47,549 nt of DNA from positions 1-47,549 of the IMG/VR virus record IMGVR_UViG_3300025153_000204. One strand, written 5' to 3'. Of the stretch, positions 2,758 to 37,718 are shown one piece after another; positions within the stretch are counted from its first letter, which is position 1; each line of letters opens with the position of its first letter. A model generated the notes under the pieces. It worked only from the letters and a program-made list of their open reading frames with translations, did not search any database and was not told the origin of the DNA. This stretch comes from a virus. The position numbers and the translations under genes were made by a program.

Positions 2758-3186
2758 ATGGAAGAACAAGAATGGCCCATCATCAGCATTTACTCCCGAA
2801 AGGAAGCCGTAGCCGACGGCGTTCAGGTTTTAGCCGATCCAAAAATCACGAAAGAGGCCGGATTTAAGTTTCCCGTTTACATGACACAAAGCGTCTGGAG
2901 TAAGTATGTCGAAGTGCCCAAAGAATTCGAAGGCATTCAGGATCTTGAAGGCCGGTTATGGGATATCCTCACGATGCTCCGTTACTCCGCGAGCCGGTGT
3001 GATTCGAATATCGTGGAATTCAAGGTTAGTGTTACGCTGCCGGATAAAGGTGACTGGACGAAATACGAAAAAATATGTGGCGAAAGTCGTACACAGCGGC
3101 TGGTCATGCTATCAAGTGAAATCGGACCAAACGAATACGATGATCCGTCACCGGTAATAACAATTTCATTACCCAACGAAGATTAA
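2758..3186 (+). CDS. DUF6573-like protein
   Basis: The 142-residue product starts 3 bases after the previous stop. Its N-terminal region (IISIYSRKEAVADGVQV, then EAGFKFPVYMTQSVW) matches my recollection of the DUF6573 family, common on plasmids and phages: a 'YSRxxAxxDGV' opening followed by 'AGFxxPVxxTxxVW'. The function of the family is not established to my knowledge. Acidic, no signal peptide, no membrane segment. A hairpin terminator-like repeat follows the stop. Confidence 0.65.
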   Translation: MEEQEWPIISIYSRKEAVADGVQVLADPKITKEAGFKFPVYMTQSVWSKYVEVPKEFEGIQDLEGRLWDILTMLRYSASRCDSNIVEFKVSVTLPDKGDWTKYEKICGESRTQRLVMLSSEIGPNEYDDPSPVITISLPNED

Positions 3187-3193
3187 TGCTGAC

Positions 3194-3220
3194 AGGGCAG
3201 TCCTTTGTGACTGTCCCTTT
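3194..3220 (+). terminator. CTGTGT-family hairpin, copy 1
   Basis: GGGCAGTC pairs with GACTGTCC (one G-U pair) around the loop CTTTGT, followed by CTTTTC. It lies directly after the DUF6573-like gene and is the first of four related hairpins in the + strand module. Confidence 0.6.
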
Positions 3221-3256
3221 TCATGTTCATAAACAATCAAACAATCAATAAGAATA

Positions 3257-3481
3257 ATGGCAAAACTAAAGGGGTTAACCCAGTTATCCAGTGCGCTTGA
3301 CAAGTTAAAAACAGTGTCAGAGCAGACCCGCGAAAATCTCGATGAAAAGCGCGGGTGGTGGGAAGAGAAAACAGAAAAATGGCAGGAGAGCGACACCGGT
3401 CAGGAGTGGGACGAACACTTGGCAGATGTCGAAAACATCCTGGATGAGATCGACGCACTGGAAATGCCGGAAAGCGAATAA
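3257..3481 (+). CDS. Small acidic helical protein (74 aa)
   Basis: The product is almost all predicted helix and strongly charged: KRGWWEEKTEKWQES, then a DVENILDEIDALEMPESE tail. Trp residues lie in an i,i+1 and i+7 pattern within the middle helix. No signal peptide and no membrane segment. I do not recognise a named family, although short Trp-Glu-Lys-rich proteins of this kind are frequent on Bacteroidota phages and plasmids. The gene is flanked on both sides by hairpins of the CTGTGT family, so it is probably a self-contained transcription unit or cassette. Confidence 0.6.
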   Translation: MAKLKGLTQLSSALDKLKTVSEQTRENLDEKRGWWEEKTEKWQESDTGQEWDEHLADVENILDEIDALEMPESE

Positions 3482-3489
3482 TCATGCAG

Positions 3490-3511
3490 GGGCAGTCCTG
3501 TGTGACTGCCC
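3490..3511 (+). terminator. CTGTGT-family hairpin, copy 2
   Basis: A perfect 8-bp stem GGGCAGTC / GACTGCCC encloses the loop CTGTGT, 8 bases after a stop codon. The following bases TCTATTT give a weak T-tract. Same stem and loop as the copies near 3200, 7685 and 11170. Confidence 0.6.
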
Positions 3512-3541
3512 TCTATTTCAATATCTTAATAACTAAATAAA

Positions 3542-3850
3542 ATGATCAGAAAAAACGGAACCGTTAAAGTATCCCGGATATTCAAAGTCCGGGCATTCAT
3601 CACCCAACGAACCAAAAAAGGCTGGAACCAAACCTATTACATGGAGACAGTTATTATTGCCAATCCCGAACATGCATACCAGGTTTATATGCTCGAACTG
3701 AATAAGATAAAACCCGACCTGTTTTATAACAGCGACACCAAAAAAGCAGATTGTTCGCTTTTCGTACCGCACATTCAGAATGACGGCTCTTTGGCTTACT
3801 GGCCTGAAAACGGCAAATACATACAACGATTTAAACATAACATAGAATAG
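3542..3850 (+). CDS. Hypothetical protein (102 aa)
   Basis: A basic N-terminal half with beta character (KNGTVKVSRIFKVRAFI) is followed by ITQRTKKGWNQTYYMETVIIANPEHAYQ and a C-terminal segment ending GKYIQRFKHNIE (both given only as pieces of the product). It has no membrane segment or signal peptide. No family recognised. The stop is 2 bases before the next start, so the two are co-transcribed. The small basic beta-rich character would fit a nucleic-acid-binding accessory protein, which is speculative. Confidence 0.55.
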   Translation: MIRKNGTVKVSRIFKVRAFITQRTKKGWNQTYYMETVIIANPEHAYQVYMLELNKIKPDLFYNSDTKKADCSLFVPHIQNDGSLAYWPENGKYIQRFKHNIE

Positions 3851-3852
3851 CC

Positions 3853-4077
3853 ATGCCAAACGCCAGTCAATCCGCCATGCGGGAAATAGGGAAAGCGATC
3901 AGGGCAATTGATAGTTTTTCCTTTATGAATTTCGATGCAGTGGGCACAATTGAAAATGTTGAGAGAATAAACATTGCCCGCAAAAACCTGATCAATACGC
4001 TTTTCTCATGTGGTTATGAATTAGAGGAGTTTACATCGCGGGTAAGAAAATCAAAACACAAGAGAGCATTAATTTAA
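3853..4077 (+). CDS. Hypothetical protein (74 aa)
   Basis: The 74-residue product is helical and ends in a strongly basic tail (SRVRKSKHKRALI). It begins MPNASQSAMREIGKAIRAID. It follows the previous gene by 2 bases and is followed by the second copy of the repeated leader hairpin. No family recognised. Confidence 0.5.
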   Translation: MPNASQSAMREIGKAIRAIDSFSFMNFDAVGTIENVERINIARKNLINTLFSCGYELEEFTSRVRKSKHKRALI

Positions 4078-4086
4078 AATTTTACT

Positions 4087-4114
4087 ATCCCGACGCCATC
4101 CGGACAAAGATGGT
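4087..4114 (+). promoter_or_regulatory. Repeated leader hairpin, copy 2 (before methyltransferase 1)
   Basis: ATCCCGACGCCATCCGGA is identical to the block at 827-844, followed by the arm GATGGT that pairs with GCCATC. It ends 9 bases before the ATG at 4123. The loop differs (ACAAA against AAAAT) while the arms are kept, which argues for a structured element. Confidence 0.5.
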
Positions 4115-4122
4115 CATTCATT

Positions 4123-5787
4123 ATGGACAAACAAGAAATACTTCAGTCATGTACGGTCGAAGGTCTAATTGTCAAACTTCCTGACGAACAGTTTGATCGT
4201 AAAGTTTATCAGGAAGTCGCAAAAGCGCTCGAACTTATCGGGGGTAAATGGAAAGGTGGTAAAATCGCAGGCTTCGTATTCAACGAAGATCCCACCGGCC
4301 TGCTCGCTCAAATCGCAGGAGGCGAAAGTCGTAACCTGAACAAAGAATACCAATTCTATGCTACACCGCCAGCGATTGCCGATTGGCTGGTGGAATTGGC
4401 CGGTATTAAACCCGGCCACAAAATCCTTGAACCATCAGCCGGTCAGGGTGCCATTATCAATGCGATTAATCGGGTATTGCCCGAACAAATGGTTTACTGG
4501 TGTGAGTTAATGCCATTGAATCAAACCTTTCTTAAAAAAATATCGCACACTTGTTACGTTGAAGATGACTTCATTAATTCGTGCGGTTTAAGTGATTTCG
4601 ACCGCATCATTGCGAATCCGCCATTTTCGAAAAATCAGGATATCGACCATATTCGCAAGATGTATGATTGTCTTAAACCCGGAGGTCGTTTAGTATCCAT
4701 TGCCTCAAACCATTGGAATACATGCAACAACAGAAAAGAACATGATTTCCAAATGTGGCTGAAAGAAGTCAATGCCAGTGTCTGCTCTGAAACTATTAAA
4801 CCAGGTGACTTCCGCGAATCCGGCACAATGATCGGAATGAATATCATTACAATAAACAAACCTGCCGAATTGCCAAAGCCCAATCGTGCAATAACACGGA
4901 GCATCAATAGCGCAACTGTTAATCATTTATCTTTCAAGGATCGTATGATTGCCGATATCAACACGATCATATCAGAAGCAACCAAAAAACCATTCAAATC
5001 AGGCGATAGAAAGGTTACAATCTCTCAGTTTCTTGAAGAAGTGGGTGCAAAAACACCAAAACAAATAGCTGAAAAAACTGCTGACTTTATTCGGTATGCA
5101 GGAACGCAAAAAACCAGCGTTAATAGTACGGGTTGCATAGAATTCAGGGACTCTCTCACGAATGCCTCTTATAAAGTTCCCGACGCTGCCAGTTTACCGG
5201 GGTTTTTATTAAGTCTTAAACGACAATGGGGTGATGGAGTATCCCACGATCCCAGCACCGGAATTCCTGACAACTACGGACGGGACTTCCGACATAAATT
5301 ACAAGACAACGTTTTGGCAAAACGTCGTCTTGTACAGTCGAAACCCGATGATGCACGTATGAAAAAAGATCGTGAGGAGTTTATTACACGGCTTATTTTA
5401 TGCCAGGACACAAACGATATCTATTATCAATGCCGAAACTTCATTCTTGGATCGTTGGCTCCAAAAGCCGAACCAATACCAGATGCGGCACCCGCAAAGG
5501 TGAAAGCATTACCGACACCGGCACCGATCCCAATTCCGGCAAAAGTGAAAGAGCCGGAGCCAAAGCGACCTGCACCGGTAAAGCAGCAAATCATTGTTGA
5601 ATTTGTCGTTGTTGAGTATTCCGAACGATCCGTTGCACTCTTTGGCAACACCAAAACCATTAAGGATAAATTAATGGAGCTGCACGGCGTATTCAACCGG
5701 CACCTCAAATACAACGATCAACCGGCATCCGGATGGGTATTCTCCAAAAAACGCGAAGCCGCAATCCGGCAATTAATCGCATCGTAA
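4123..5787 (+). CDS. N6-adenine-type DNA methyltransferase with C-terminal accessory domain
   Basis: The product has 554 residues. Residues 1-75 resemble a small N-terminal domain ending at FYATPPAIADWLV, the usual lead-in to gamma-class amino-methyltransferases. Motif I is ILEPSAGQGA (101-110) and catalytic motif IV is NPPF (165-168), so S-adenosylmethionine-dependent amino methylation of DNA is likely. After about residue 340 comes a region of unknown role, then a Pro/Ala/Lys linker (about 450-490), and last a 65-residue C-terminal module (VALFGNTKTIKDKL... GWVFSKKREA) seen repeatedly in Bacteroidota mobile-element proteins. No restriction nuclease is adjacent. I infer an orphan methylase that protects or marks element DNA. 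Target sequence unknown. Confidence 0.75.
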   Translation: MDKQEILQSCTVEGLIVKLPDEQFDRKVYQEVAKALELIGGKWKGGKIAGFVFNEDPTGLLAQIAGGESRNLNKEYQFYATPPAIADWLVELAGIKPGHKILEPSAGQGAIINAINRVLPEQMVYWCELMPLNQTFLKKISHTCYVEDDFINSCGLSDFDRIIANPPFSKNQDIDHIRKMYDCLKPGGRLVSIASNHWNTCNNRKEHDFQMWLKEVNASVCSETIKPGDFRESGTMIGMNIITINKPAELPKPNRAITRSINSATVNHLSFKDRMIADINTIISEATKKPFKSGDRKVTISQFLEEVGAKTPKQIAEKTADFIRYAGTQKTSVNSTGCIEFRDSLTNASYKVPDAASLPGFLLSLKRQWGDGVSHDPSTGIPDNYGRDFRHKLQDNVLAKRRLVQSKPDDARMKKDREEFITRLILCQDTNDIYYQCRNFILGSLAPKAEPIPDAAPAKVKALPTPAPIPIPAKVKEPEPKRPAPVKQQIIVEFVVVEYSERSVALFGNTKTIKDKLMELHGVFNRHLKYNDQPASGWVFSKKREAAIRQLIAS

Positions 5788-5797
5788 TTTCTTCTTG

Positions 5798-5831
5798 CCC
5801 TTCGAGTGGTTGCAAACCCTAGAAGGGGCTT
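5798..5831 (+). terminator. Nested hairpin after methyltransferase 1
   Basis: CCCTTC pairs with GAAGGG, and inside it GGTT pairs with AACC around GCA; GGCTTTAA follows. It lies 10 bases after the stop at 5787, so a terminator or mRNA-end structure is likely. Confidence 0.4.
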
Positions 5832-5873
5832 TAACTTCAATACAATCAATCAAATTATTAAAAACAAATTATC

Positions 5874-6362
5874 ATGCACATAGATGTAAAAGTATCAGTC
5901 TGGAAACGTATCAAATTACCCGAAAGCGCAACCAAAGAAGAAATTATCAAAGTGCTCGAATTTGGCGAATTAGGTATTGACGACCTTTTCGAAACTTATG
6001 CCGATCTTGATTATAACGAAGTCGAAAACAGCGAAGAGACACTTACGCCGGAAGATAATGGTGGTCAGGAAACTATTGAACTCTATTGCATCGACGAAAA
6101 AGGCGATGGTCCTATCTGGACCAATAAGCCTACCGAATCCGAACCCGAATCCACCTATGTCCTATTTGGTGCCGAAGCGGTAAATTCCTATGATGAAGGC
6201 GGTGTCGATGGGCTGAGTCAGGATATTGAAGCTAACGAAGTTTGCACTTATGAACTTACTGTATTTCCAGCCAATACAAGCGTAGCCGAAATTCTTTGTG
6301 CCGGAGACGGTTGGGAAAAATATGCAATTATTACTAAAGACGAATACGATCAACTCAATTAA
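5874..6362 (+). CDS. Hypothetical acidic protein (162 aa)
   Basis: A very acidic product. It starts MHIDVKVSVWKRIKLPESAT, followed by a helix of the 'KEEIIKVLEFGELGIDDLF' type and a variable acidic stretch. The C-terminal half (about 85-162) has alternating strands and ends in a helix. Low cysteine, no signal, no membrane segment. No family recognised; the charge profile resembles phage-encoded DNA-mimic proteins, but that is only a resemblance of composition. The next gene starts 2 bases after the stop and also opens with a short beta strand, so the two are probably co-translated. Confidence 0.6.
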   Translation: MHIDVKVSVWKRIKLPESATKEEIIKVLEFGELGIDDLFETYADLDYNEVENSEETLTPEDNGGQETIELYCIDEKGDGPIWTNKPTESEPESTYVLFGAEAVNSYDEGGVDGLSQDIEANEVCTYELTVFPANTSVAEILCAGDGWEKYAIITKDEYDQLN

Positions 6363-6364
6363 CT

Positions 6365-6568
6365 ATGAAAGCAATTTTAATCACAATTCAAATCGCCACC
6401 CGCGTTATTGTTGCCGATGATGCATCTGAGCAGGATATAATCAATATAGCCTTGCCTCGCCTTTGCCGTAATATGGATTCTGACCCGTGGGGAGATTCCG
6501 AAATCGGCGACGATACCGAATGCCCTTACAAACCCGAATACGACGAGCTAACCAATGAAGAAAATTAA
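6365..6568 (+). CDS. Small acidic protein (67 aa)
   Basis: It starts 2 bases after the preceding stop. It opens with a strand-rich segment MKAILITIQIATRVIVADD, then a helix, and closes with an Asp/Glu/Pro-rich tail containing DTECPYKPEYDELTNEEN. The opening has the same general plan as the previous protein (beta strand, 'a(t/s)eqdIIniAl' helix). The pair may be distant paralogues, which is a weak inference. Function unknown. Confidence 0.5.
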   Translation: MKAILITIQIATRVIVADDASEQDIINIALPRLCRNMDSDPWGDSEIGDDTECPYKPEYDELTNEEN

Positions 6569-6592
6569 TTTATTATTTAAGCCCATTTAATT

Positions 6593-6865
6593 ATGAAACC
6601 TTTTATTTACAATGGAATGAGGTTAACCCCTCTCAGAAAACTGACACAATCAGAAGTCAACCAAGAGTTAAATTTGCCTTTCACTTCAATTGGAGTACGC
6701 AATTATCAAAACGTACCACACCTGAACAGACAAAAGGACATCCCTTACAACTATATTAATTTTTACGTCAAGGCCAAATTGGCCGGAGCTGAAAACATTG
6801 ATGTATTTCTATACAAAGGAATGGAAGTTGTGCCGTGTACAAACGAATTATTTAAAATTAAATAA
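6593..6865 (+). CDS. Hypothetical protein (90 aa)
   Basis: A basic, Asn- and Tyr-rich product beginning MKPFIYNGMRLTPLRKLTQS, with a central NYQNVPHLNRQKDIPYNYIN segment and a C-terminal strand pair. It has no membrane segment and no cysteine cluster. It is preceded by a leader with the A/T-rich TTTATTATTTAAGCCC block. Family not recognised. Confidence 0.5.
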   Translation: MKPFIYNGMRLTPLRKLTQSEVNQELNLPFTSIGVRNYQNVPHLNRQKDIPYNYINFYVKAKLAGAENIDVFLYKGMEVVPCTNELFKIK

Positions 6866-6878
6866 ATAGCCAAAAACA

Positions 6879-7670
6879 ATGAATCCTACAATTTATTCCA
6901 CACACGGAACAATAATTATCAATCCCGAAACCGGGGCCATTATCGCAACCGATATCGACATGTGTAACGATAATTGCATTGACAATATCGACCGCTTCGA
7001 TATTGAACAATACAAACAATTTTACAATGTAGATAAGCTCCCAGGTGCGATAGATATTCTCGACATGGGATATTGGAAAGATGGCATATACGAAGAACCC
7101 GCACATGATTGGCGTGAAGACACAATCAAACTTCGTGCAGGACTAACACCGGACGGTTGGCCCGAAGAGCCTGTTAAAAAACCTGATATCGTTCGTATCT
7201 CCGAACCAAGAGATAATTACCACAGCGCCACAGTTCATATTCCTAACGTAAACCTTCACCTGTTCGAAAAACAACGCAGGGCATTTCTCGAATATATAGC
7301 CGGTATTGATTCTTTTCAGGATGAGCGCGACGGTTTGGAAAACTTTCTAAATGCTATTGGTGATGCATTTTATGATCAAACAAACGGACACAGCTCACTC
7401 CTGCCGGAACTGAACGACGCCGATGATGTGAAACATTGGTTTGAATTTTTGATCGAAGATTTAGATATATCAATACATCCCGACAATCCTTTCGAAGATT
7501 ACATTAACAATGAAGAACCCAGCGAACCCACCTTTGATGCTGAAACAGCTGCGCTGCTCAATCAAAAAATGGAACAGGCATTTTTGATCTGCACATGCTC
7601 CGGAAGGGATATCTACGAAATTGGAATGGACATAACACGCAAAGCATTAAATCTTTCCATCGACGAATAA
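6879..7670 (+). CDS. Hypothetical protein (263 aa)
   Basis: The N-terminal 60 residues are strand-rich and acidic (GTIIINPETGAIIATDIDM). A basic linker around 90-115 carries DIVRISEPRDNYHSA. The C-terminal half is mostly helical, with FEKQRRAFLEYIAG near 130 and an acidic ending. Three cysteines, no obvious metal site, no membrane segment. I recognise no family. It is the last gene before a strong intrinsic terminator, so it closes a transcription unit of small accessory genes that begins after the first methyltransferase. Confidence 0.6.
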   Translation: MNPTIYSTHGTIIINPETGAIIATDIDMCNDNCIDNIDRFDIEQYKQFYNVDKLPGAIDILDMGYWKDGIYEEPAHDWREDTIKLRAGLTPDGWPEEPVKKPDIVRISEPRDNYHSATVHIPNVNLHLFEKQRRAFLEYIAGIDSFQDERDGLENFLNAIGDAFYDQTNGHSSLLPELNDADDVKHWFEFLIEDLDISIHPDNPFEDYINNEEPSEPTFDAETAALLNQKMEQAFLICTCSGRDIYEIGMDITRKALNLSIDE

Positions 7671-7677
7671 TAGTACG

Positions 7678-7703
7678 GGCAGTCCTGTGTGACTGCCTTT
7701 TTT
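7678..7703 (+). terminator. CTGTGT-family hairpin, copy 3 (intrinsic terminator)
   Basis: A 7-bp perfect stem GGCAGTC / GACTGCC encloses the loop CTGTGT and is followed by TTTTTT. This copy has all features of a Rho-independent terminator and lies 7 bases after the stop at 7670. Confidence 0.75.
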
Positions 7704-7731
7704 ATAATCAATCATTAATATTCAAACCAAC

Positions 7732-8280
7732 ATGAACTATTTAGAACAAATTGTGGCACTCGATTGGCCATATAAATGCGACAATTCCGAAGAATCTTTA
7801 AACCTGATCGACTTTCTCGAAGCTGCAAAAGGTAACTTTCAGTATGCAATATCCTTGAGAGAGCGCGTAAACGGTCAACATCCCACAACCATTGTGGAAG
7901 GCGATTTGGTAGAAGACGAAATAATCGAAGTCAATGGGCAATACATTATGACCGGAGGAAATAAAGATTTGCTTAAATCTTCCTGCGATCTTGAAGAGCT
8001 GGCAACAATCGCCGCAATAATGGGAGATCACATTTGTGAAAAACTCTATAAATACATACAAAAGAATTGCAATTCAGGGTATTTTACAACAGTTGAGTTA
8101 ATTGGCAACTTGGCAATCGAATTCTATATGAAATTCGAAGCCGTCACTGAATGGTGTGACGAAGTGTTCCACAACCCAGGCCAATGGGATCTATCACCCG
8201 ACGTGTGTTGCTGGGATGATTGTGTGCTGGAATTTGCCGGTCAGAAATTTGATGAGTATATAAACCTAAATTCTAAATAA
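7732..8280 (+). CDS. Hypothetical protein (182 aa)
   Basis: A helical, acidic product beginning MNYLEQIVALDWPYKCDNSE. It has six or more cysteines, among them KNCNSGYF and DVCCWDDCVLEF in the C-terminal third. The CCxxDC cluster could be a metal site, but its partners are not evident. The stop overlaps the start of the next gene by one base (TAATG). Family not recognised. Confidence 0.6.
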   Translation: MNYLEQIVALDWPYKCDNSEESLNLIDFLEAAKGNFQYAISLRERVNGQHPTTIVEGDLVEDEIIEVNGQYIMTGGNKDLLKSSCDLEELATIAAIMGDHICEKLYKYIQKNCNSGYFTTVELIGNLAIEFYMKFEAVTEWCDEVFHNPGQWDLSPDVCCWDDCVLEFAGQKFDEYINLNSK

Positions 8281-8474
8281 TGGAAAATCCCGATCATCTT
8301 AACATATCCGAAGAAAGAATAATGAAACTTTTTGGCGAAAAATACACACTGCAAATCAAAGCCAGCACAGCTTTGATTTGCAAAATACATCTTAATAGTA
8401 AGCATTACTATATCGGCTACAATGACTACAGAAAGTGTTTCTACACTGCAAGTATTTTACCCGACGAAATATAA
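8280..8474 (+). CDS. Small hypothetical protein (64 aa)
   Basis: Its ATG overlaps the previous stop by one base, so it is probably translationally coupled. It opens MENPDHLNISEERIMKLFGE and continues with two short strands rich in Tyr and Lys (KHYYIGYNDYRKCFYT). The domain looks too small for an enzyme. No family recognised. Confidence 0.5.
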   Translation: MENPDHLNISEERIMKLFGEKYTLQIKASTALICKIHLNSKHYYIGYNDYRKCFYTASILPDEI

Positions 8475-8495
8475 TTATCACATAAAATAAACATC

Positions 8496-9944
8496 ATGTT
8501 CTCACCCGATTTTTACCCCACACCCGATGCCGTTATAGCTCAAATGTGCTACGGTTTAGAGCTCAATGGCCGTATTATTCTCGAACCTTCAGCCGGTAAA
8601 GGAAATATTGTCGATTACCTTCAGCTCTATGGCGCCAACGTTCTGGCCTGCGAAAAAGATCCCGACCTGGCCACAATTGTAGCAAATAAATGTCGGTTGC
8701 TTCATACCGATTTTCTTGAAGTAACACCCGAAGAAATCAGTCATGTTGACTGTATCATTATGAATCCTCCATTTTCAGCCGACGAAAAGCACATTCTTCA
8801 TGCCTGGACCATTGCACCCGAAGGATGCGAAATCATTGCACTGTGTAATTATCAAACACTCGAAAATCGTTGGAACCGGTCCCGCGAACAGCTTTCCGAT
8901 ATAGTCAAGAATTTTGGTAATAGCGAAAATTTGGGTGAAGTGTTCACCACCGCTGAGCGCAAAACTGACGTTACAATTGGTCTTGTTCATCTTTTCAAAC
9001 CGCGTGTTTCTACCGAAACCGAATTTGAAGGATACTTCGATATGTTCGAAGAATACCAACATCAGGACAATGGCCTAATGCCCTACAACGACATCGTTGA
9101 TATTGTCAATAGGTATATTGGAGCCATTAAGATGTTCAACGAAGTTATTGCGGCTTCCGATAAGATGAACAAAGTTATTGCGCCGATCAGCTCGGGTTTA
9201 GATATTGTTTTCGGTGCCCATCGTACCGGGCGTAACAATAGTTATAATGCGATCGACCGCGATACGTTTAAAAAAGAACTTCAAAAATCATCGTGGCAAT
9301 GTGTCTTCAATAAAATGAAGATGGCAAAATTTATCACCCAAAAACTAATTGGTGAGCTGAATGCATTTGTCGAAAAACAATCCAACGTTCCGTTTTCTGT
9401 ACCAAACGTTTATAAGATGTTGCAAATGATTCAGGGTACGCACAAAGAGCGAATGAATCGGGTATTAGTTGAGGCCTTTGACGAGATATGTAGCTTTTCA
9501 AGCGAAAACAGTACAGCAGGCGAAAAGTGGAAAACCAATAGCGATTATAAAATCAATCGCCGGTTTATCAAACCACATATTTGCAGGTATGATACCAAAT
9601 GGCCCAAAGATCACGTCGATATTGGCTACGGATCAAATTATTCTGTTGACGATATAATTAAAGCGCTATGTTATCTGACGGGAACCGATTACGCTGCAAC
9701 CACGAATCTTGGTTCTTTTATTGATAAAATGAAGTGTCAATGGGGCCAATGGTATGAATGGGGATTCTTTCGAATTCGCGGATATAAGAAAGGCACCATG
9801 CACTTTGAGTTTACCAACGATAAGGTTTGGGAACGGTTCAATTACCGTGTAGCCGAAATCAAAGGATGGGCGCTTCCACGCAAAACGGATGCGAAACGAA
9901 AAGGTACCGAACGGGTTAAGGAAACGGGCTTAATGATGTTCTAA
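8496..9944 (+). CDS. N6-adenine-type methyltransferase with DUF4942-like C-terminal domain
   Basis: The product has 482 residues. It opens FSPDFYPTPDAVIAQM, followed by motif I EPSAGKGN (30-37), motif II region ACEKDPDLA (51-59) and motif IV NPPF (90-93). It lacks the extra 75-residue N-terminal domain of the other methyltransferase in the window, but the cores are clearly related. From about residue 190 to the end is a helical domain with the pattern I associate with DUF4942 (VNRYIGAIKMFNEVI..., later WGFFRIRGYKKGTMHFEFT and VWERFNYRVAEIKGW). DUF4942 methyltransferases are common on phages and plasmids. Inferred role: orphan methylation of element DNA for protection against host restriction. 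Confidence 0.8.
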   Translation: MFSPDFYPTPDAVIAQMCYGLELNGRIILEPSAGKGNIVDYLQLYGANVLACEKDPDLATIVANKCRLLHTDFLEVTPEEISHVDCIIMNPPFSADEKHILHAWTIAPEGCEIIALCNYQTLENRWNRSREQLSDIVKNFGNSENLGEVFTTAERKTDVTIGLVHLFKPRVSTETEFEGYFDMFEEYQHQDNGLMPYNDIVDIVNRYIGAIKMFNEVIAASDKMNKVIAPISSGLDIVFGAHRTGRNNSYNAIDRDTFKKELQKSSWQCVFNKMKMAKFITQKLIGELNAFVEKQSNVPFSVPNVYKMLQMIQGTHKERMNRVLVEAFDEICSFSSENSTAGEKWKTNSDYKINRRFIKPHICRYDTKWPKDHVDIGYGSNYSVDDIIKALCYLTGTDYAATTNLGSFIDKMKCQWGQWYEWGFFRIRGYKKGTMHFEFTNDKVWERFNYRVAEIKGWALPRKTDAKRKGTERVKETGLMMF

Positions 9945-9954
9945 AGCAAATTTA

Positions 9955-9984
9955 TTGCAATGCAATAAAAAAGCATTATACTTG
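9955..9984 (+). promoter_or_regulatory. Candidate Bacteroidota-type promoter
   Basis: TTG at 9955-9957 and TATACTTG at 9977-9984 are separated by 19 bases, close to the Bacteroidota -33 TTTG / -7 TAnnTTTG arrangement. An 11-base odd palindrome (TTGCAATGCAA) overlaps the -33 element and could be an operator. It lies about 30 bases before the start at 10015. Confidence 0.45.
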
Positions 9985-10014
9985 CATTTTGCATTTAATC
10001 TAATATGTCAAATA

Positions 10015-10422
10015 ATGAAACAGATCACAATCAGAGTGGAGAATGATTCAGCGGATATGCTAGCCGAATTAAACGACAAGATTACCACTGCTGCACAAAC
10101 AGTTATAGAAATTTTCACCTATCTGCGTCGTGGAACAATTAATGAACTTCGCGGACGATTCAGCAAAATAGAAATAAAGGCGATGTCTGAAGTTTATAAG
10201 TGGTTTAAACCCTCTTGGCAAATTATGAATAGTCCAGGAGCAATCGTTATAACTGTTACCAATGCAGAAAAACACAACCAGGCATTATCTGCCAACGGTG
10301 CCAGCCTTGATCTGCTTATTCCCAAATTGGAAGCTCTAACCTCTGCTCAGGCAATAGTACTTCAGCTCGAACTTATTAACGTATCACCAGATATCAATAA
10401 GTTAATCAAAACACTATTATAA
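10015..10422 (+). CDS. Hypothetical protein (135 aa)
   Basis: The frame is open from 9955, but ATG at 10015 is preferred because the upstream part would run through the candidate promoter and gives an unlikely Cys/His-rich extension. The chosen start gives MKQITIRVENDSADMLAELN, a beta strand then helices. The C-terminal half is Leu/Ala-rich helical, with no membrane-length segment. Family unknown. The gene forms its own unit: candidate promoter in front, strong terminator behind. Confidence 0.6.
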   Translation: MKQITIRVENDSADMLAELNDKITTAAQTVIEIFTYLRRGTINELRGRFSKIEIKAMSEVYKWFKPSWQIMNSPGAIVITVTNAEKHNQALSANGASLDLLIPKLEALTSAQAIVLQLELINVSPDINKLIKTLL

Positions 10423-10445
10423 ATAAATCTTTCACCTTACCTTGA

Positions 10446-10476
10446 AAACAGCCGTGATTTATTGCGGCTGTTTTTT
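10446..10476 (+). terminator. Intrinsic terminator
   Basis: AAAACAGCCG pairs perfectly with CGGCTGTTTT around a 10-base loop, giving a G/C stem followed by six Ts. It lies 23 bases after the stop at 10422. Its sequence differs from the CTGTGT-loop hairpin family. Confidence 0.8.
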
Positions 10477-10508
10477 CAGCCAATCATTTAGTATTAAATT
10501 CAATCAAT

Positions 10509-11150
10509 ATGCTTAAATTATCTTATCTTCTTGCACCATTGCAGAAACATCACCCCGAAATTGTATCCGACTTCATTGTCGATTATTGCCGACTGGCTGA
10601 TGTACCTGGTGACGAAACCTACCATTATGGCTACGGCTCGCTCAAATGGGCACTATCCTTTATCGCAGAGAACGACCCAAAATATGCAGGTCTTATCTTT
10701 TTCAATATTCTTTGCGAAGGGGTGGCCAAAAAAATTGAACCAAACACTTATGAGTACGGCATCTTAAAGTTTCACTCTATCACCCGATACCGGACGGAAC
10801 TTAAAGCAATGGATCCTATTGATATTGGAGCATTGCCGGTTGAAATAATTGGCACTACAAAAATTGTAATCAACACCACCAGTCGCCAGTTGTCTTCAAT
10901 GATCTTCCGAAATATTCCCGATGTGGGAATGATCATATCCGTTTGCACAGGAACACATCCATCCATCAAAATGCGCATGAACAAGCAATTAATCGCTTCC
11001 ATTCCAAACCAGATTCTCGACCTGTTAGGATCAATCGACGGTGGCTGGGTTATGTTGTCAAACGGATCAGGAGTCACGATCATTAACCATGGGTGCATCA
11101 CGATATCAGTGGATCAAATACTCGAAACGATTACCCCCGCATTAATCTGA
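10509..11150 (+). CDS. Hypothetical protein (213 aa)
   Basis: The N-terminal half is helical (LLAPLQKHHPEIVSDFIVDY, then SLKWALSFIAENDPKYAGLI). The C-terminal half is strand-rich, with repeated Ile-Thr/Ile-Ser segments. No signal peptide, no membrane segment, few cysteines. No family recognised. It follows a terminator and precedes the decayed CTGTGT hairpin that separates it from the ligase. Confidence 0.6.
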   Translation: MLKLSYLLAPLQKHHPEIVSDFIVDYCRLADVPGDETYHYGYGSLKWALSFIAENDPKYAGLIFFNILCEGVAKKIEPNTYEYGILKFHSITRYRTELKAMDPIDIGALPVEIIGTTKIVINTTSRQLSSMIFRNIPDVGMIISVCTGTHPSIKMRMNKQLIASIPNQILDLLGSIDGGWVMLSNGSGVTIINHGCITISVDQILETITPALI

Positions 11151-11163
11151 TCTCCATCAGTAT

Positions 11164-11184
11164 GGGCAATCCTGTGTGATTATC
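11164..11184 (+). terminator. CTGTGT-family hairpin, copy 4 (decayed)
   Basis: GGGCAATC and GATTATC flank the exact loop CTGTGT. The stem keeps the AATC/GATT inner pairs and carries matched changes (G to A, C to T) relative to the other copies, with outer mismatches. There is no T-run, so termination here is doubtful. Confidence 0.45.
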
Positions 11185-11208
11185 TCTTCATTCATTAATC
11201 CCTTTATT

Positions 11209-17946: not shown

Positions 17947-19965
17947 TTATTGGCCTTTTAACCCGGCTTTCTCCTTTTGAAGAAATTCTGCATATCCGTA
18001 AGGGTATCGCCATTCTTTTTGGTAACACCGGTAATTCAGTAACACATCCGCAAGATTGGCAATCATGCCACCGGATTTTAGTATTTCACACCAAAGGTGG
18101 TAATCCTCAGCAAACCCGGTTTTTGTTTTTCCGTACCCGCCAACATTGAGTAAGGCAGACTTTCTGATCGCCACTCCGGGATGATTGATAAACCAGGTGC
18201 CGGGCATTTCAAATGCACTTTGCCTGGTTACAACCGGTGGGTGAGTGGTCACCATCTCTTTCGCCCCGAAAAACTGAACCTGCACTCCACATACGTCAAA
18301 ATCTTCATTGGCCTCCAAAAATTCAACCAGCTTACTTATCAGATTTGGTTCAGCAATATCGTCACAGTCCATCCGAACTATAATATCACCATTACAGTAT
18401 CCTAAACCAAAATCAAGCACTTCCGAAAACTGAAGCTTTACATCTTTAACAACGAGACATGCAATTGGAATTTTCGGTGATGATTGTTCCATAACAAACC
18501 TCTCAATGATTACAGTTTGACTCAGCCTGCAATCATGGTTAATTACCAACAACTCAATCTCTCCCTCGTAATCCTGATTTGCAATACTCTCAATTGCTTT
18601 TTCAATCCACATTTCGTTACCATCCCGGATTGGCATCAATACGCTCACTTTTGGTAATTCCGGTATAGGTGCGATTAATTGCGTCAGAACCGGCACGGAC
18701 GCAATTAATTGCGTCTCTACTGTTGATCCTTTAATTGTATTATCAATCAGTTCAATTGCCTCATCTGAAGCGCCACTTTTCGCTTTTACCTTCTCTTCGG
18801 TCTTCCGACTCCCGACTTCTGTCTTTTTCCCCATATCTAAAAAATTTATAAAAAGTTTTTCCTGAAATTTCAAACTCCTGAATTCGCTCACATATTGTGC
18901 AGCATCATTTCCCATCCGTTCCCTTTCCACAGGATGTTGGTGTAAATGGTTAATTGCCTGTACAAACAACTCAATCTCTGCTGGTGAATAACACGGTTCA
19001 GCTAATATCTCTTTGATCTCCAATCGCTGCTTTATCGGAACAACGATTCCTCTGCCGGTCATAACATTCGGGATATCTCCAATACCTGGCATAACGCAAG
19101 GGATTCCGGCACCCATCATTTCCAAAAGTGCAATGGGAAGACCTTCGGATGGTGAGCAGTTTAATCCAATGTCAAAAGCCTGCATAGTTTTATACACGTC
19201 TTTCGTCGCAAGATTTCCGGTTATGGTAACCCGGTTTTGAAACTTTCCGGCTCCAATGGTTTGAATTAATCGTTTTACCCGGCCATGATAACTCTCGCTT
19301 GCAGCTGACGCGCAAACGCCTCCAACAATAAGCAACCGGGCATTGATCGATGCAGGAAGCTTTGATAATATTTTCACGGCATCAAGGATATTCTTGTCTG
19401 CAGCTAAACGCGTAATCATTCCGATCACAAAATCCCTATCTTTAAATCCGAACTCATTCCGTACGGTAGTATGGTAGTGAGACTCTGCTGAAATAAGGTC
19501 AAAATCCACGCAATTAGGTATAACTACAAATTTTCGTTTGTCCATAACTCCATAACTGATAAACGAATCCATAATTTTTTTATGAATCGCATAGTATCCG
19601 TCGGTACCCTTTTCAAACTTCACTACCTGATTATACACCCAATTAATATCGCTGTGCAGAATCGTTAAATACCTGAAACCGATTTTCTGCTTTAATTGAA
19701 TCACCAATTGCGTAATGACAAAGAAATTGCAATTGAAAACCACATCGCAACCCTGAATTAATCGCGAAACCATATCCAGGGTTGGATTCATAGTTACAAC
19801 CTCAATCCTTATTCCGGTAGCTTTGATGAGTTCATAAAACCTTCCCGTTGTACCACTCAGCACAATTACATCAAATCCATTAAGATAAGCCATCAAGACA
19901 TGGTGATACGAAACAAATTCAGCCCCACCCACATCATTTACGCCGATCAAAAAAGCTATTTTCAT
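17947..19965 (-). CDS. Fused glycosyltransferase (GT4-type plus GT2-type)
   Basis: Two enzyme domains in 672 residues. Residues 1 to about 375 have a GT-B fold of the GT4 family: IGVNDVGGAEFVSYH at the N-terminus, VIGMITRLAADKNIL in the middle, and the donor-binding SPSEGLPIALLEMMGAGIP near 265-285. A linker follows (about 375-430), partly formed by inserted palindromic repeats. Residues about 430-672 are a GT-A domain of the GT2 family: KVSVLMPIRDGNEMWIEKAI opening, and the metal-binding MDCDD near 535. Both would transfer sugars from activated donors; acceptors are unknown. The gene overlaps its upstream neighbour by 4 bases inside a phage structural run. Glycosylation of virion proteins or host surface glycans is inferred. 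Confidence 0.85.
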   Translation of the reverse strand: MKIAFLIGVNDVGGAEFVSYHHVLMAYLNGFDVIVLSGTTGRFYELIKATGIRIEVVTMNPTLDMVSRLIQGCDVVFNCNFFVITQLVIQLKQKIGFRYLTILHSDINWVYNQVVKFEKGTDGYYAIHKKIMDSFISYGVMDKRKFVVIPNCVDFDLISAESHYHTTVRNEFGFKDRDFVIGMITRLAADKNILDAVKILSKLPASINARLLIVGGVCASAASESYHGRVKRLIQTIGAGKFQNRVTITGNLATKDVYKTMQAFDIGLNCSPSEGLPIALLEMMGAGIPCVMPGIGDIPNVMTGRGIVVPIKQRLEIKEILAEPCYSPAEIELFVQAINHLHQHPVERERMGNDAAQYVSEFRSLKFQEKLFINFLDMGKKTEVGSRKTEEKVKAKSGASDEAIELIDNTIKGSTVETQLIASVPVLTQLIAPIPELPKVSVLMPIRDGNEMWIEKAIESIANQDYEGEIELLVINHDCRLSQTVIIERFVMEQSSPKIPIACLVVKDVKLQFSEVLDFGLGYCNGDIIVRMDCDDIAEPNLISKLVEFLEANEDFDVCGVQVQFFGAKEMVTTHPPVVTRQSAFEMPGTWFINHPGVAIRKSALLNVGGYGKTKTGFAEDYHLWCEILKSGGMIANLADVLLNYRCYQKEWRYPYGYAEFLQKEKAGLKGQ
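18669..18715. repeat. Two in-frame palindromic repeats within the glycosyltransferase linker
   Basis: A perfect 18-base palindrome GACGCAATTAATTGCGTC lies at 18698-18715, and a partly matching copy (GCGATTAATTGCGTC) at 18671-18685. They encode the repeated peptides TQLIA-SVPVL-TQLIAP in the linker between the two domains. Related palindromes occur at 20809 and 20942. Confidence 0.7.
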
Positions 19966-20747: not shown

Positions 20748-20808
20748 ATTACAAAAATGTAATTACAAAATATAAGGATAAAGGACAGCAATCCCCCGCG
20801 TTTGGTAC

Positions 20809-20828
20809 AGACGCGATTAATCGCGTCT
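20809..20828. repeat. Palindromic repeat (20 bp, perfect)
   Basis: AGACGCGATTAATCGCGTCT is a perfect palindrome just after the stop region of the Stealth-like glycosyltransferase. The same family lies inside coding sequence at 18669-18715 and 20942-20966. Such GAGACGCGATTAATCGCGTCTC-type elements are recalled as dispersed repeats in some bacterial genomes. Confidence 0.65.
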
Positions 20829-20830
20829 CT

Positions 20831-21616
20831 TCATTTCTCAAACCTGCATTTTTCGGGATACATTCCCTGTATAAAATTCTTCAGGCAATCATCCAAACCA
20901 TCATCATTGTGATTCAAATAATATTTCCCTGTGCAGATGTGAGAGACGCGATTCAATCGCGTCTCTATAAGCTGACACTCTCCAGGTCCGTACGAAAAAT
21001 CGTTTTCATATCCGTAAAACAGGGCCCGCTCCACCTTCCGGTCCTTGAACATCCTTTCATAAGGGAAAACATTGAAATAAAGAGTAGAAGTCAATAACCG
21101 GTTTTCTAACGGATCAAACATTTCAAAAATCTCCCGCATTTTATCTTTCTCAAAAACCTCAGGGCAATGCGTTTCTGTCATATATCCGTGATACCCCAAT
21201 CTAACCACCGCGTCAGTGCTTCTAAATACCTGGTCGCGCCAAACAATTCCTCCGGAAACAAATTCTCCGCTGTTTAATTCATCGTTGGTGAATAAGTATC
21301 GCGTGATCTGCATTTGCTTCAAAGTCCTGGCGCCGGTAATATAAACATCGTCATACATCCTTAAAAACTTATCCGGGCTGTCATTGTGGTCGATATATAA
21401 CTTCAGCTTTGACACTGCATCATAAGTAGTTCCGGCATTTGTCATTGCTGTTTTTTGATGGGGGATATGCTTTACATTTCGGACCCACTCTGGCAGATCC
21501 CCTACAATCCAAACTTCATAATCTTCGTTTAAAAACTTTTCCAGGCTACGAAGCGAATAACGCAACTCTTCCCACCTGCTTGCACTTGCCAAATAGGGAT
21601 AATATACTCCAATCAT
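20831..21616 (-). CDS. Stealth-like glycosyltransferase / sugar-phosphate transferase
   Basis: 261 residues. The N-terminal part (LASASRWEELRYSLRSLEKF, EVWIVGDLPEW) is typical of the opening of Stealth-type proteins. The acidic motif FLRMYDDVYI near 85-94 corresponds to the NDD-type catalytic motif, and TETHCPEVFEKDKMREI near 145-160 matches the conserved HxP region. In Stealth proteins these motifs belong to sugar-phosphate transfer in capsule synthesis. A GT-A-like enzyme acting on a surface glycan or virion protein is inferred. Residues near 225 are encoded by an inserted palindrome. It lies downstream of the decoration protein, separated by a strong terminator, so it may be expressed separately from the capsid genes. 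Confidence 0.65.
   Translation of the reverse strand: MIGVYYPYLASASRWEELRYSLRSLEKFLNEDYEVWIVGDLPEWVRNVKHIPHQKTAMTNAGTTYDAVSKLKLYIDHNDSPDKFLRMYDDVYITGARTLKQMQITRYLFTNDELNSGEFVSGGIVWRDQVFRSTDAVVRLGYHGYMTETHCPEVFEKDKMREIFEMFDPLENRLLTSTLYFNVFPYERMFKDRKVERALFYGYENDFSYGPGECQLIETRLNRVSHICTGKYYLNHNDDGLDDCLKNFIQGMYPEKCRFEK
20942..20966. repeat. Palindromic repeat inside the Stealth-like gene
   Basis: AGAGACGCGATT and AATCGCGTCTCT form a perfect inverted repeat with one central base. In frame it encodes IETRLNRVS near the C-terminus of the product, so the element has entered a coding region without breaking it. Confidence 0.7.
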
Positions 21617-21641
21617 AATCTCCGATTTAAGGGTAGTCGTT

Positions 21642-21677
21642 GGGGCAGTCCTATGTGACTACCATAGATGACTGCCC
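21642..21677. terminator. CTGTGT-family related hairpin, structured loop
   Basis: The outer arms GGGCAGTC and GACTGCCC are the same as those of the + strand hairpin family. The loop is longer and contains an inner hairpin (CTATG / CATAG). It lies between the decoration protein and the Stealth-like gene, next to a separate strong terminator. Confidence 0.5.
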
Positions 21678-21683
21678 TATATT

Positions 21684-21743: not shown

Positions 21744-22274
21744 CTAAGCGCCACTTCCTTCAACCGATGGAAGAGCACCCGTGTAGTGAATGATTTTGTC
21801 GCCTGCAAAAAGAGATTCGAGTTTTACGGAATTCGAATCTTCCTTCTCGTCATCTTTCTGCTCGTGGTTTAGTTGCAAAGGATTGCCCGGCCAGCCAAGC
21901 AGCTTATTGAACGCAAGGTCGGGATATACAACAATCGCCATCAGATTCTCATTAACATTGTCGTTGATAAACTGCGAATATTGCAGACTCGATCCCGGAT
22001 GATCAAACTCAACAGTATGGATAAATCCTTTTTTGTCGGCCTCACCACTTGTTTTATCTCCTACCTTGATGGTGTTTGGAGTTGCATAGATCTCGATGGC
22101 TTTTGCCCCTGCTTTTAAAACCAGAGGACCGATAACAGATACGCCATCGACTCCTTTGACCGGCTTGCTCAACAAATCGTCAGTCCTGATCAATATGATG
22201 TAGGAGCTTTTAGGATTCGGGCGACCGGGATTTCCGTTTTTTGATATTGATTTCTTTACACTAATAAATGCCAT
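21744..22274 (-). CDS. Probable virion decoration protein (176 aa)
   Basis: The product starts with a polar, Asn/Pro/Lys-rich arm (SKNGNPGRPNPKSSY) followed by a strand-rich core and a charged loop, ending PSVEGSGA. The last six residues before the stop (EGSGA plus small residues) match the end of the capsid protein just upstream. It lies directly downstream of the capsid gene and upstream of a strong terminator. Gene position and the beta-rich composition fit a capsid decoration or head-completion protein; this is inference, because I do not recognise a named family. Confidence 0.55.
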   Translation of the reverse strand: MAFISVKKSISKNGNPGRPNPKSSYIILIRTDDLLSKPVKGVDGVSVIGPLVLKAGAKAIEIYATPNTIKVGDKTSGEADKKGFIHTVEFDHPGSSLQYSQFINDNVNENLMAIVVYPDLAFNKLLGWPGNPLQLNHEQKDDEKEDSNSVKLESLFAGDKIIHYTGALPSVEGSGA

Positions 22275-24953: not shown

Positions 24954-25043
24954 TTTAACGGTACAATTTTAATCACGCAATTTCGGATGGCATAGGACGA
25001 TATCAATTGATTTGTAGGTGTAACCCTCCGTGATTGCCCCAAA

Positions 25044-25055
25044 ATCATGCATGAT
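25044..25055. promoter_or_regulatory. 12-base perfect palindrome
   Basis: ATCATGCATGAT reads the same on both strands and lies in the gap upstream of the S49 protease gene. It could be an operator of a dimeric regulator. No second copy seen nearby. Confidence 0.3.
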
Positions 25056-25120
25056 TACCCTCCTATATTTTGTAATCGCTAAAATCCTTCTGGATTGCGC
25101 CACATCCCCAAAAACACCAA

Positions 25121-36071: not shown

Positions 36072-37718
36072 TTACTTTAATAGTTTTTTCCCTTTTTCGG
36101 TTAGTCGGTATTTTTGCAGTCGGCTATTAGGTTTATCAGGCAAGGTCATCTCAATAATATCATATTCCAATAGTGGTTTAATATAGTAATTAAAGTGTTT
36201 AGAGTGGTTGATAAGCCCCAAATGGGCTAAAATATCAATTCTTGATTTCTCTTCGATTAGAAAATCGATTATCTCTAATGACTTAGACACCGACTTAGAC
36301 ACCGACTTAGACACCGACTTAGTTACTATTTGATCTCTGACGATGTCTCTGACATCACTGAGATCGTTGTCCAAAAGCATGCTTAATAGTTGAAAATCAA
36401 ATTTTTCGGCCATTAAAACATCAACATCTGCAGGGGTTAATTTATTTCCTGACTTAGTTACTAACTTAGTTACTAACCAATCAGCATGGCAAGGCAAAGT
36501 GACCAAAAACAATATACTTTCTTCGTCGGTATAAAAGATCGGTGCCGGATTACCATTTTTCGTCATTTCGTCACGAATTACAGGAATACCTGTGGCTTTT
36601 CCCTCTGTGAGGTTTAATTCCTTCAAAAAATCACCAATTCTCCGGTTCCGATAATCCCTTGCAATTACTCTTCGTTGTTGTAAATCGGCATTTTTGATTG
36701 GGGGCAAAGGACCAGGATAACTTAAGATTTCGATCCGGTCAGGAAGCACCTGTATTTCAATGGGTTTTTCATCAGCATAACTTTTATGATAAACCGCATT
36801 GCAGATTGCTTCTTCCAAAGCATTGTAAGGATAATTGCTGATGTTCAAACTTTCTGCCTGACCGGTAATTTTCCTGGTCTCGGTTTTTAGTACTTTGTCT
36901 TTCAAGTAGGCCAGACAATTACGTATTTGCTTGTGCAAAGGACCTTTAAAAGTTTCTGAAATATAATTCCGACCTGCTTCGTCCTTATGAATGGCCAATT
37001 CAATCCATGCCCGATTAAAAAAACGGTGCGGGTTACTATTGAAAAACAAGAGCCCTGCGTTTACAGGCCTTAGGAATTCAACCGGGCCACGGGCAATTTG
37101 CATCGCTTTGCACAAATCGGCAAAGGGCATCGAGGTACTTTCTTCGAATAAATCGCTCCCAACTTCCTGCAAGAACTCACGAATCAAGCCCAGCTCCAGG
37201 TTGTTAAGCTTAGCTTCCTGATTGATACGGTCATCGAAAGGTATTTTTGCAGTCAACTCAATCAAGTGTGTTTGATTATCTCCTTGTGCTACAATACTCC
37301 GGCTACCCGACCTGATATAATATTGCCTCCTTGCATCATTTCCAAGGGTCGATGGGCAAGAATAGGGACGCATATCGCCGGCTGGACACCAAACAACTAA
37401 AATATGCTTACCGTCAATTTCATACGGTTGTGTAATGGGAAGATAATTGGGTTGAATTTTATAGCATATGCCAATTAATTCACCTTGTATCCGGTCTAAA
37501 CTATCCAATAGCAATCCTTTCAATGGAAATTGAGGAATCCCTTCGATTGCATTGATGCCAATGATGATATAACCACCTCCCCAATTATTGATATCATTGG
37601 CAAATGCGCACACTGAATGCAAAACGTCTTCAGGGTTCCAGCCTTCCTTAAATTCAAGTCGTTCCCATTCAACTACTTTGCCGTGTACTAATTCTAATAT
37701 GTTTACTGGTAGTGCCAT
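36072..37718 (-). CDS. Schlafen/AlbA_2-type ATP-binding regulator inside the BREX operon
   Basis: 548 residues. The N-terminal AlbA_2 domain opens VVEWERLEFKEGWNPEDV and continues CAFANDINNWGGGYIIIGI (about 15-55). A middle region LEEAICNAVYHKSYADEKPI near 285-305 and GDFLKELNLTEGKATGIPVI near 355-375 fit the HATPase_c_4 domain of COG2865-type regulators. C-terminal segments resemble winged helices. Two low-complexity stretches, VTKLVTKS (about 414-422) and KSVSKSVSKSVSKS (about 465-479), link the domains; the latter comes from 12-base tandem repeats. The gene lies between pglX (152-base gap) and pglZ (3-base gap), not a core BREX position. A role in regulating BREX or a linked effector is inferred. 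Confidence 0.8.
   Translation of the reverse strand: MALPVNILELVHGKVVEWERLEFKEGWNPEDVLHSVCAFANDINNWGGGYIIIGINAIEGIPQFPLKGLLLDSLDRIQGELIGICYKIQPNYLPITQPYEIDGKHILVVWCPAGDMRPYSCPSTLGNDARRQYYIRSGSRSIVAQGDNQTHLIELTAKIPFDDRINQEAKLNNLELGLIREFLQEVGSDLFEESTSMPFADLCKAMQIARGPVEFLRPVNAGLLFFNSNPHRFFNRAWIELAIHKDEAGRNYISETFKGPLHKQIRNCLAYLKDKVLKTETRKITGQAESLNISNYPYNALEEAICNAVYHKSYADEKPIEIQVLPDRIEILSYPGPLPPIKNADLQQRRVIARDYRNRRIGDFLKELNLTEGKATGIPVIRDEMTKNGNPAPIFYTDEESILFLVTLPCHADWLVTKLVTKSGNKLTPADVDVLMAEKFDFQLLSMLLDNDLSDVRDIVRDQIVTKSVSKSVSKSVSKSLEIIDFLIEEKSRIDILAHLGLINHSKHFNYYIKPLLEYDIIEMTLPDKPNSRLQKYRLTEKGKKLLK
36280..36322 (-). repeat. 12-base tandem repeat array within the AlbA_2-type gene
   Basis: GACTTAGACACC occurs three times in a row plus seven more bases, giving the in-frame KSVS repeat. 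Two copies of a related 12-base unit (ACTTAGTTACTA) lie at 36452-36475. Unit length is a multiple of three, so copy-number change alters linker length, not frame. Confidence 0.9.

What the first reader, a model, noticed from the sequence alone, without database searches (positions are those of the whole stretch)
3194..11184. Family of hairpins with conserved stem GGGCAGTC/GACTGCCC and loop CTGTGT
Four copies lie near 3200, 3500, 7685 and 11170, always just after a stop codon. A fifth with the same arms lies near 21650, and a possible relic near 25020. Loop conservation goes beyond what a terminator needs, so a shared protein or RNA target, or a packaging or recombination role, is possible.
Basis: partly seen in the sequence, partly recalled or inferred. 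Interest (0 to 1): 0.6.

Follow-up and report, generated by a model that had tools for sequence, protein, structure and literature searches.

The report
Bacterial REP hairpins in a phage
The repeated hairpins are copies of a known kind of small bacterial mobile repeat, a REP sequence spread by a RAYT-type transposase; here they sit in a Bacteroidota phage that carries no such enzyme, four of the five stand just after stop codons, and none of the five keeps the intact recognition tag.

Summary
The hairpins are real. Five copies stand out far above chance, at 3195, 3490, 7677, 11164 and 21643, all on the + strand. The 25020 relic is only suggestive.

They are not a phage-specific terminator, packaging or recombination signal. 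A hairpin-only search of 84,980 prokaryotic genomes returned 118 loci. 93 of 121 copies there carry GTAG directly in front of the stem, although the search did not ask for it. That is the signature of GTAG REP sequences, the substrates of REP-associated tyrosine transposases (RAYT/TnpAREP). The wider family keeps the loop CTNTGT and the base GGGC/GCCC while the stem covaries. In several genomes copies lie inside or beside a RAYT gene.

The window encodes no Y1 transposase. None of its five copies keeps GTAG (0/5 against 93/121, p=0.001). A second Bacteroidota REP family also occurs in the window, including a pair inside a gene.

Most likely these are host-derived REPs, mobilised in trans and now decaying, with a possible secondary effect on mRNA or translation. 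The kind is known. REPs in phages are little described, though other phage contigs carry them too.

The parts
3191..3216 (+). REP copy 1: tag GACA (3191-3194), hairpin GGGCAGTC-CTTTGT-GACTGTCC (3195-3216), 8 nt after the TAA of gene 2758-3186
3486..3511 (+). REP copy 2: tag GCAG, perfect hairpin GGGCAGTC-CTGTGT-GACTGCCC (3490-3511), 8 nt after the TAA of gene 3257-3481
   Evidence: RNA fold z=-3.2
7673..7698 (+). REP copy 3: tag GTAC, hairpin GGGCAGTC-CTGTGT-GACTGCCT (7677-7698), 6 nt after the TAA of gene 6879-7670, followed by a T run (terminator-like)
   Evidence: RNA fold z=-3.3
11160..11185 (+). REP copy 4 (decayed right arm, AATC subtype): tag GTAT, GGGCAATC-CTGTGT-GATTATCT (11164-11185), 13 nt after the TGA of gene 10509-11150
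   Evidence: does not fold as this hairpin in RNA
21632..21682 (+). REP copy 5, core 21639-21664 with tag GTTG and GGGCAGTC-CTATGT-GACTACCA, embedded in interleaved arms GGGTAGTC / GGGCAGTC / GACTACC / GACTGCCC, between minus-strand genes 20831-21616 and 21744-22274
   Evidence: fold z=-4.9
25014..25066 (+). Possible relic: GTAG-GTGTAACC-CTCCGT-GATTGCCC, followed by a GTAATCATGCATGATTAC-type palindrome
   Evidence: model E=0.36, not significant
20805..20828 (+). Second REP family: GTAC-AGACGCGATTAATCGCGTCT (GTAG-tagged form in sampled Bacteroidota genomes)
18663..18720 (.). Inverted pair of the second REP family inside gene 17947-19965(-); the copy read from 18720 down to 18697 on the minus strand keeps an intact GTAG (GTAG-AGACGCAATTAATTGCGTCC)

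Best explanation
The hairpins are REP sequences (repetitive extragenic palindromes) of a widespread GTAG-tagged family, GTAG-GGGC(NNN)C-CTNTGT-G(N'N'N')GCCC, acquired by a Bacteroidota phage from its hosts. Shown here: family membership by sequence, tag position, stem covariation with a fixed loop, dispersal in many bacterial genomes, and physical association with RAYT genes. Inferred: a host RAYT (TnpAREP, a Y1 HUH transposase) recognised the tag plus the loop and stem as single-stranded DNA and deposited copies in the phage in trans, since the phage contig encodes no such enzyme. Copies landed, or were tolerated, just 3' of stop codons and have since lost their tags. Any present role is secondary: modest effects on mRNA 3' ends, on translation of the upstream gene, or on termination at the copy followed by a T run.
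For: (1) 93/121 genomic copies found with a hairpin-only pattern have GTAG exactly 4 nt before the stem. In viral contigs it is 88/122 of copies whose stem pairs, against 6/32 of copies whose stem does not. (2) The stem covaries (AGT/ACT, AAT/ATT, AGA/TCT, AAA/TTT, GGA/TCC and others) while the loop stays CTNTGT (the loop was part of the pattern, but it came from the model search). (3) Copy number reaches 67, 118 and at least 150 per genome. (4) Copies flank or interrupt RAYT genes in Flammeovirga, Aminicenantes, Saprospiraceae, a cyanobacterium and others: 34 model hits of at least 29 bits in 92 kb of RAYT loci. (5) TnpAREP read loop bases and the GTAG tag (PMC8266576). (6) A second, unrelated Bacteroidota REP family is also in the window. 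(7) Genomic GTAG copies also sit just after sense stop codons: 13 of 26 within 15 nt, against 1 of 31 in the antisense direction, as reported for REPs (PMC3733652).
Against: No empty site was found in a related phage, so insertion into this phage is inferred, not shown. No window copy of this family has an intact GTAG, except the doubtful relic at 25014. The phage's own host is unknown, so its RAYT could not be examined. The AGTC subtype has no full match in the phage record collection.
Confidence: 0.86

Rival explanations
1. REP-derived but domesticated: the phage keeps the hairpins as RNA elements in its early operon (mRNA stabilisation, translation stalling within 15 nt of the stop codon, or partial termination), so stem and loop stay while the transposition tag is lost.
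For: Tag lost in 5/5 window copies against 28/121 genomic copies found by the same hairpin search (Fisher p=0.001). Four copies stand 6-13 nt after stop codons and in transcription sense. In E. coli, REPs within 15 nt of the stop codon stall ribosomes (PMC12306157). Two copies keep pairing through G-U (3195, 7677).
Against: Copy 4 no longer folds as the hairpin. Some TnpAREP tolerate changed tags, including GTAC (PMC8266576), so tag loss need not mean a new function. Copy 5 is not in a 3' UTR in sense orientation. The p value treats copies as independent.
Confidence: 0.2
2. Ordinary intrinsic terminators that resemble each other by chance or duplication.
For: Copies at 3195 and 7677 score as terminator-like with T-rich tails.
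Against: 3490 and 11164 do not pass the terminator scan. The same loop occurs in unrelated bacteria with varying stems and with GTAG. Co-directional genes start only 23-40 nt after the four hairpins.
Confidence: 0.06
3. A phage-specific protein or RNA target (packaging site, recombination site, operator).
For: Several near-identical palindromes with a fixed loop in one phage.
Against: No significant copies in the parts held of phage relatives L126 (shares a run of head and terminase genes; terminase 41% identical), L127, L128 and L129. The family is bacterial and dispersed.
Confidence: 0.03

Closest known systems
GTAG-tagged REP sequences of RAYT/TnpAREP (PMC3733652, PMC2817692)
   Same: Short palindrome directly after a GTAG tetranucleotide, many dispersed copies, extragenic and often just 3' of genes, inverted pairs, occasional copies inside genes.
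   Different: The window copies are in a phage contig without a RAYT, and their tags read GACA, GCAG, GTAC, GTAT and GTTG.
REPtrons of subclass 2.4 TnpAREP (PMC6006769), common in Cyanobacteria and Bacteroidetes, with REP insertions inside the tnpAREP gene
   Same: The Flammeovirga RAYT found with this REP has MPNHFH and YIIDNP motifs close to the subclass signature (NHxH, YIxNNP), and REP copies lie in and around it.
   Different: Subclass was judged only by motif, not by a tree. The window has the REPs but no tnpAREP.
Intrinsic (Rho-independent) terminators
   Same: Short GC-rich hairpin after a stop codon; T run after the 7677 copy.
   Different: The fixed loop, the GTAG-tagged relatives and the missing T runs at other copies are not terminator features.

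Membership tests
GTAG REP sequences | Palindrome with a fully paired stem of about 7-20 bp and a short loop | tested here: met
   8-bp stem and 6-nt loop in the family; window copies 1-3 pair fully (with G-U), copy 4 and copy 5 have broken or weak pairs.
GTAG REP sequences | GTAG or GTGG immediately 5' of the stem | tested here: inconclusive
   Met by the family (93/121 genomic and 88/122 viral paired copies). Not met by the five window copies: all keep the first G, four differ from GTAG at one position and one (GACA) at three.
GTAG REP sequences | High copy number, dispersed in bacterial genomes | tested here: met
   Model hits in all 32 chosen genomes, up to at least 150 per genome; 49/396 sampled Bacteroidota genomes.
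GTAG REP sequences | Association with a RAYT/TnpAREP gene | tested here: met
   Met for the family in other genomes; no Y1_Tnp in the window itself.
GTAG REP sequences | Mobility (cleavage or insertion by a TnpAREP) | not testable with these tools
   No empty site in relatives; needs biochemistry or closer relatives.
Intrinsic terminators | Stem directly followed by a T tract at all copies | tested here: not met
   Only 3195 and 7677 pass the terminator scan.

The most novel reading that the evidence does not exclude
A phage has collected host REPs of at least two families and kept one family, stripped of its transposition tag, as a set of post-stop RNA hairpins that tune expression of its early operon.
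Probability: 0.15. Interest if true: 0.5.

Novelty: new member of a known kind. Interest (0 to 1): 0.3.

Why it matters
It explains an apparent phage 'signal' as host repeat DNA and shows that REPs are not confined to bacterial chromosomes. Several other phage contigs with a terminase carry two or more copies. Phages could therefore carry REPs between hosts, which bears on the open question of how REP families spread. The papers searched here do not report REPs in phage genomes, but most subscription journals were not covered.

Tried and rejected
Rfam: no match. tRNA/tmRNA: none. Phage relatives carrying the hairpins or an empty site: none. The closest proteins are 41-56% identical, only L126 shares a run of genes, and the genes flanking the hairpins that were searched have no relatives in the collections. 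Selection on the hairpin: supported by the tag/hairpin contrast but weakened by the decayed copy 4. Strand bias: all five copies are on +, although transcription flips near 13 kb; that would fit lagging-strand targeting, but 5/5 is not significant. The Prevotella MAG copy near an IS200-like fragment (L146) was set aside as a possible chance neighbour; the RAYT relative L169 in the same genome has a REP at the gene and was kept.

Full report
Observation. Five copies of the hairpin are present on the + strand at 3195, 3490, 7677, 11164 and 21643. With up to three mismatches the pattern is expected 0.06 times and seen four times; the 11164 copy has diverged further. The loop is CTNTGT rather than strictly CTGTGT. 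Four copies stand 6-13 nt after a stop codon in the + strand gene cluster. The fifth lies between minus-strand genes, next to a separate terminator-like hairpin. The site near 25020 starts with GTAG and retains CTCCGTGATTGCCC, but the model gives it only E=0.36.

What carries it. The window is a virus record with terminase, head maturation protease, DNA ligase and methyltransferase-like genes. Its terminase relatives among phage records are mostly Cellulophaga, Flavobacterium and Porphyromonas phages at up to 45% identity, so the host is probably a member of Bacteroidota (inferred).

The key result. One scan of 84,980 species genomes with a hairpin-only pattern gave 118 loci, against roughly 30 expected by chance from base counts alone (my estimate). 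In 93 of 121 copies the four bases before the stem are exactly GTAG, which the search did not request. Copies are numerous within single genomes: 67 in a Prevotella MAG, 118 in a Desulfamplus MAG and at least 150 in a Thiotrichaceae MAG. In a sample of 396 Bacteroidota genomes, 49 have model hits. Looser matches show stems AGA/TCT, AAA/TTT, GGA/TCC and more, with the same loop and the same tag. A tag, a covarying stem and a fixed loop are the anatomy of GTAG REPs (PMC3733652).

The enzyme. Eight of eight REP-bearing genomes tested encode a Y1 transposase. In Flammeovirga aprica a RAYT-like gene is bracketed by inverted pairs of GTAG-GGGCAGAC-CTATGT-GTCTGCCC. Relatives of that protein in other genomes also have copies within or beside the gene; loci from Aminicenantes, Saprospiraceae, a cyanobacterium and three more Flammeovirga show this directly. 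[quoted passage not shown] PMC8266576 shows that certain TnpAREP tolerate no change at some loop positions and use the tag to choose the cleavage site. This offers a direct reason for the conserved loop.

The phage copies. The window has no Y1_Tnp match even at E=1. Its five tags are GACA, GCAG, GTAC, GTAT and GTTG. 0/5 against 93/121 gives p=0.001, and 0/5 against 88/122 viral copies gives p=0.002. These tests treat copies as independent, which copies from one genome are not. The pattern fits either decay of immobile copies or retention of only the hairpin for another use. Copy 4, whose right arm no longer pairs well, favours decay. A changed tag does not prove immobility, because one characterised enzyme accepted GTAC with a matching cleavage site (PMC8266576).

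A second family. GTAC-AGACGCGATTAATCGCGTCT at 20805 and an inverted pair at 18663-18720, inside gene 17947-19965, belong to another GTAG REP family. That family was found in 17 of 297 sampled Bacteroidota genomes, with zero hits of the reversed control. One of the window copies keeps GTAG. Two host REP families in one phage support acquisition from hosts rather than invention by the phage.

REPs in other viruses. IMG/VR holds at least 119 stretches with the looser pattern (the scan stopped at its limit). Of 14 contigs tested that carry two or more copies, six also encode a large terminase; the others may be fragments or not phage. Phage database records are almost free of them: three subtypes were searched and only one unannotated 8-kb record matched. 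The second family has no match there. The window is therefore one instance of a more general but little described occurrence.

Position and possible effect. Genomic GTAG copies also prefer the first 15 nt after a sense stop codon (13 of 26, against 1 of 31 antisense). Four of the 13 are cases where the tag itself supplies the TAG stop, as noted in PMC3733652. In E. coli, REPs within 15 nt of the stop can stall ribosomes (PMC12306157). Such an effect on phage genes is possible but untested.

Noticed in passing
827-856 and 4087-4116: Two 30-nt repeats, 90% identical (ATCCCGACGCCATCCGGAAAATGATGGCCA), each containing a GCCATC/GATGGC-type hairpin and ending 6-7 nt before an ATG start (864, 4123). 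Possibly a shared 5' leader element of the phage.
   Followed up: no
21632-21682: Arms of two palindromes are interleaved (GGGTAGTC, GGGCAGTC, GACTACC, GACTGCCC), as if two REP variants were fused. The whole folds strongly on both strands.
   Followed up: partly
18663-18720: An inverted REP pair lies inside the coding sequence of gene 17947-19965(-) and encodes TVETQLIASVPVLTQLIAPIPE in frame.
   Followed up: partly
36280-36475: Short 12-nt tandem repeats (GACTTAGACACC / GACTTAGTTACT) within gene 36072-37718(-).
   Followed up: no
L268, L286 and L340 (IMG/VR contigs): Three viral loci share TGCAAA-GGGCTGTC-CTGTGT-GACAGCCC-TTTGCA: same loop, no GTAG, stem extended through the tag. A possible phage-owned hairpin of similar shape.
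   Followed up: no
L234 (IMG/VR 3300017991_000452): A 20-kb phage contig with a terminase holds at least seven REP copies of this superfamily, some in tandem with GTTG tags: a better case than the window for studying REPs in phages.
   Followed up: partly
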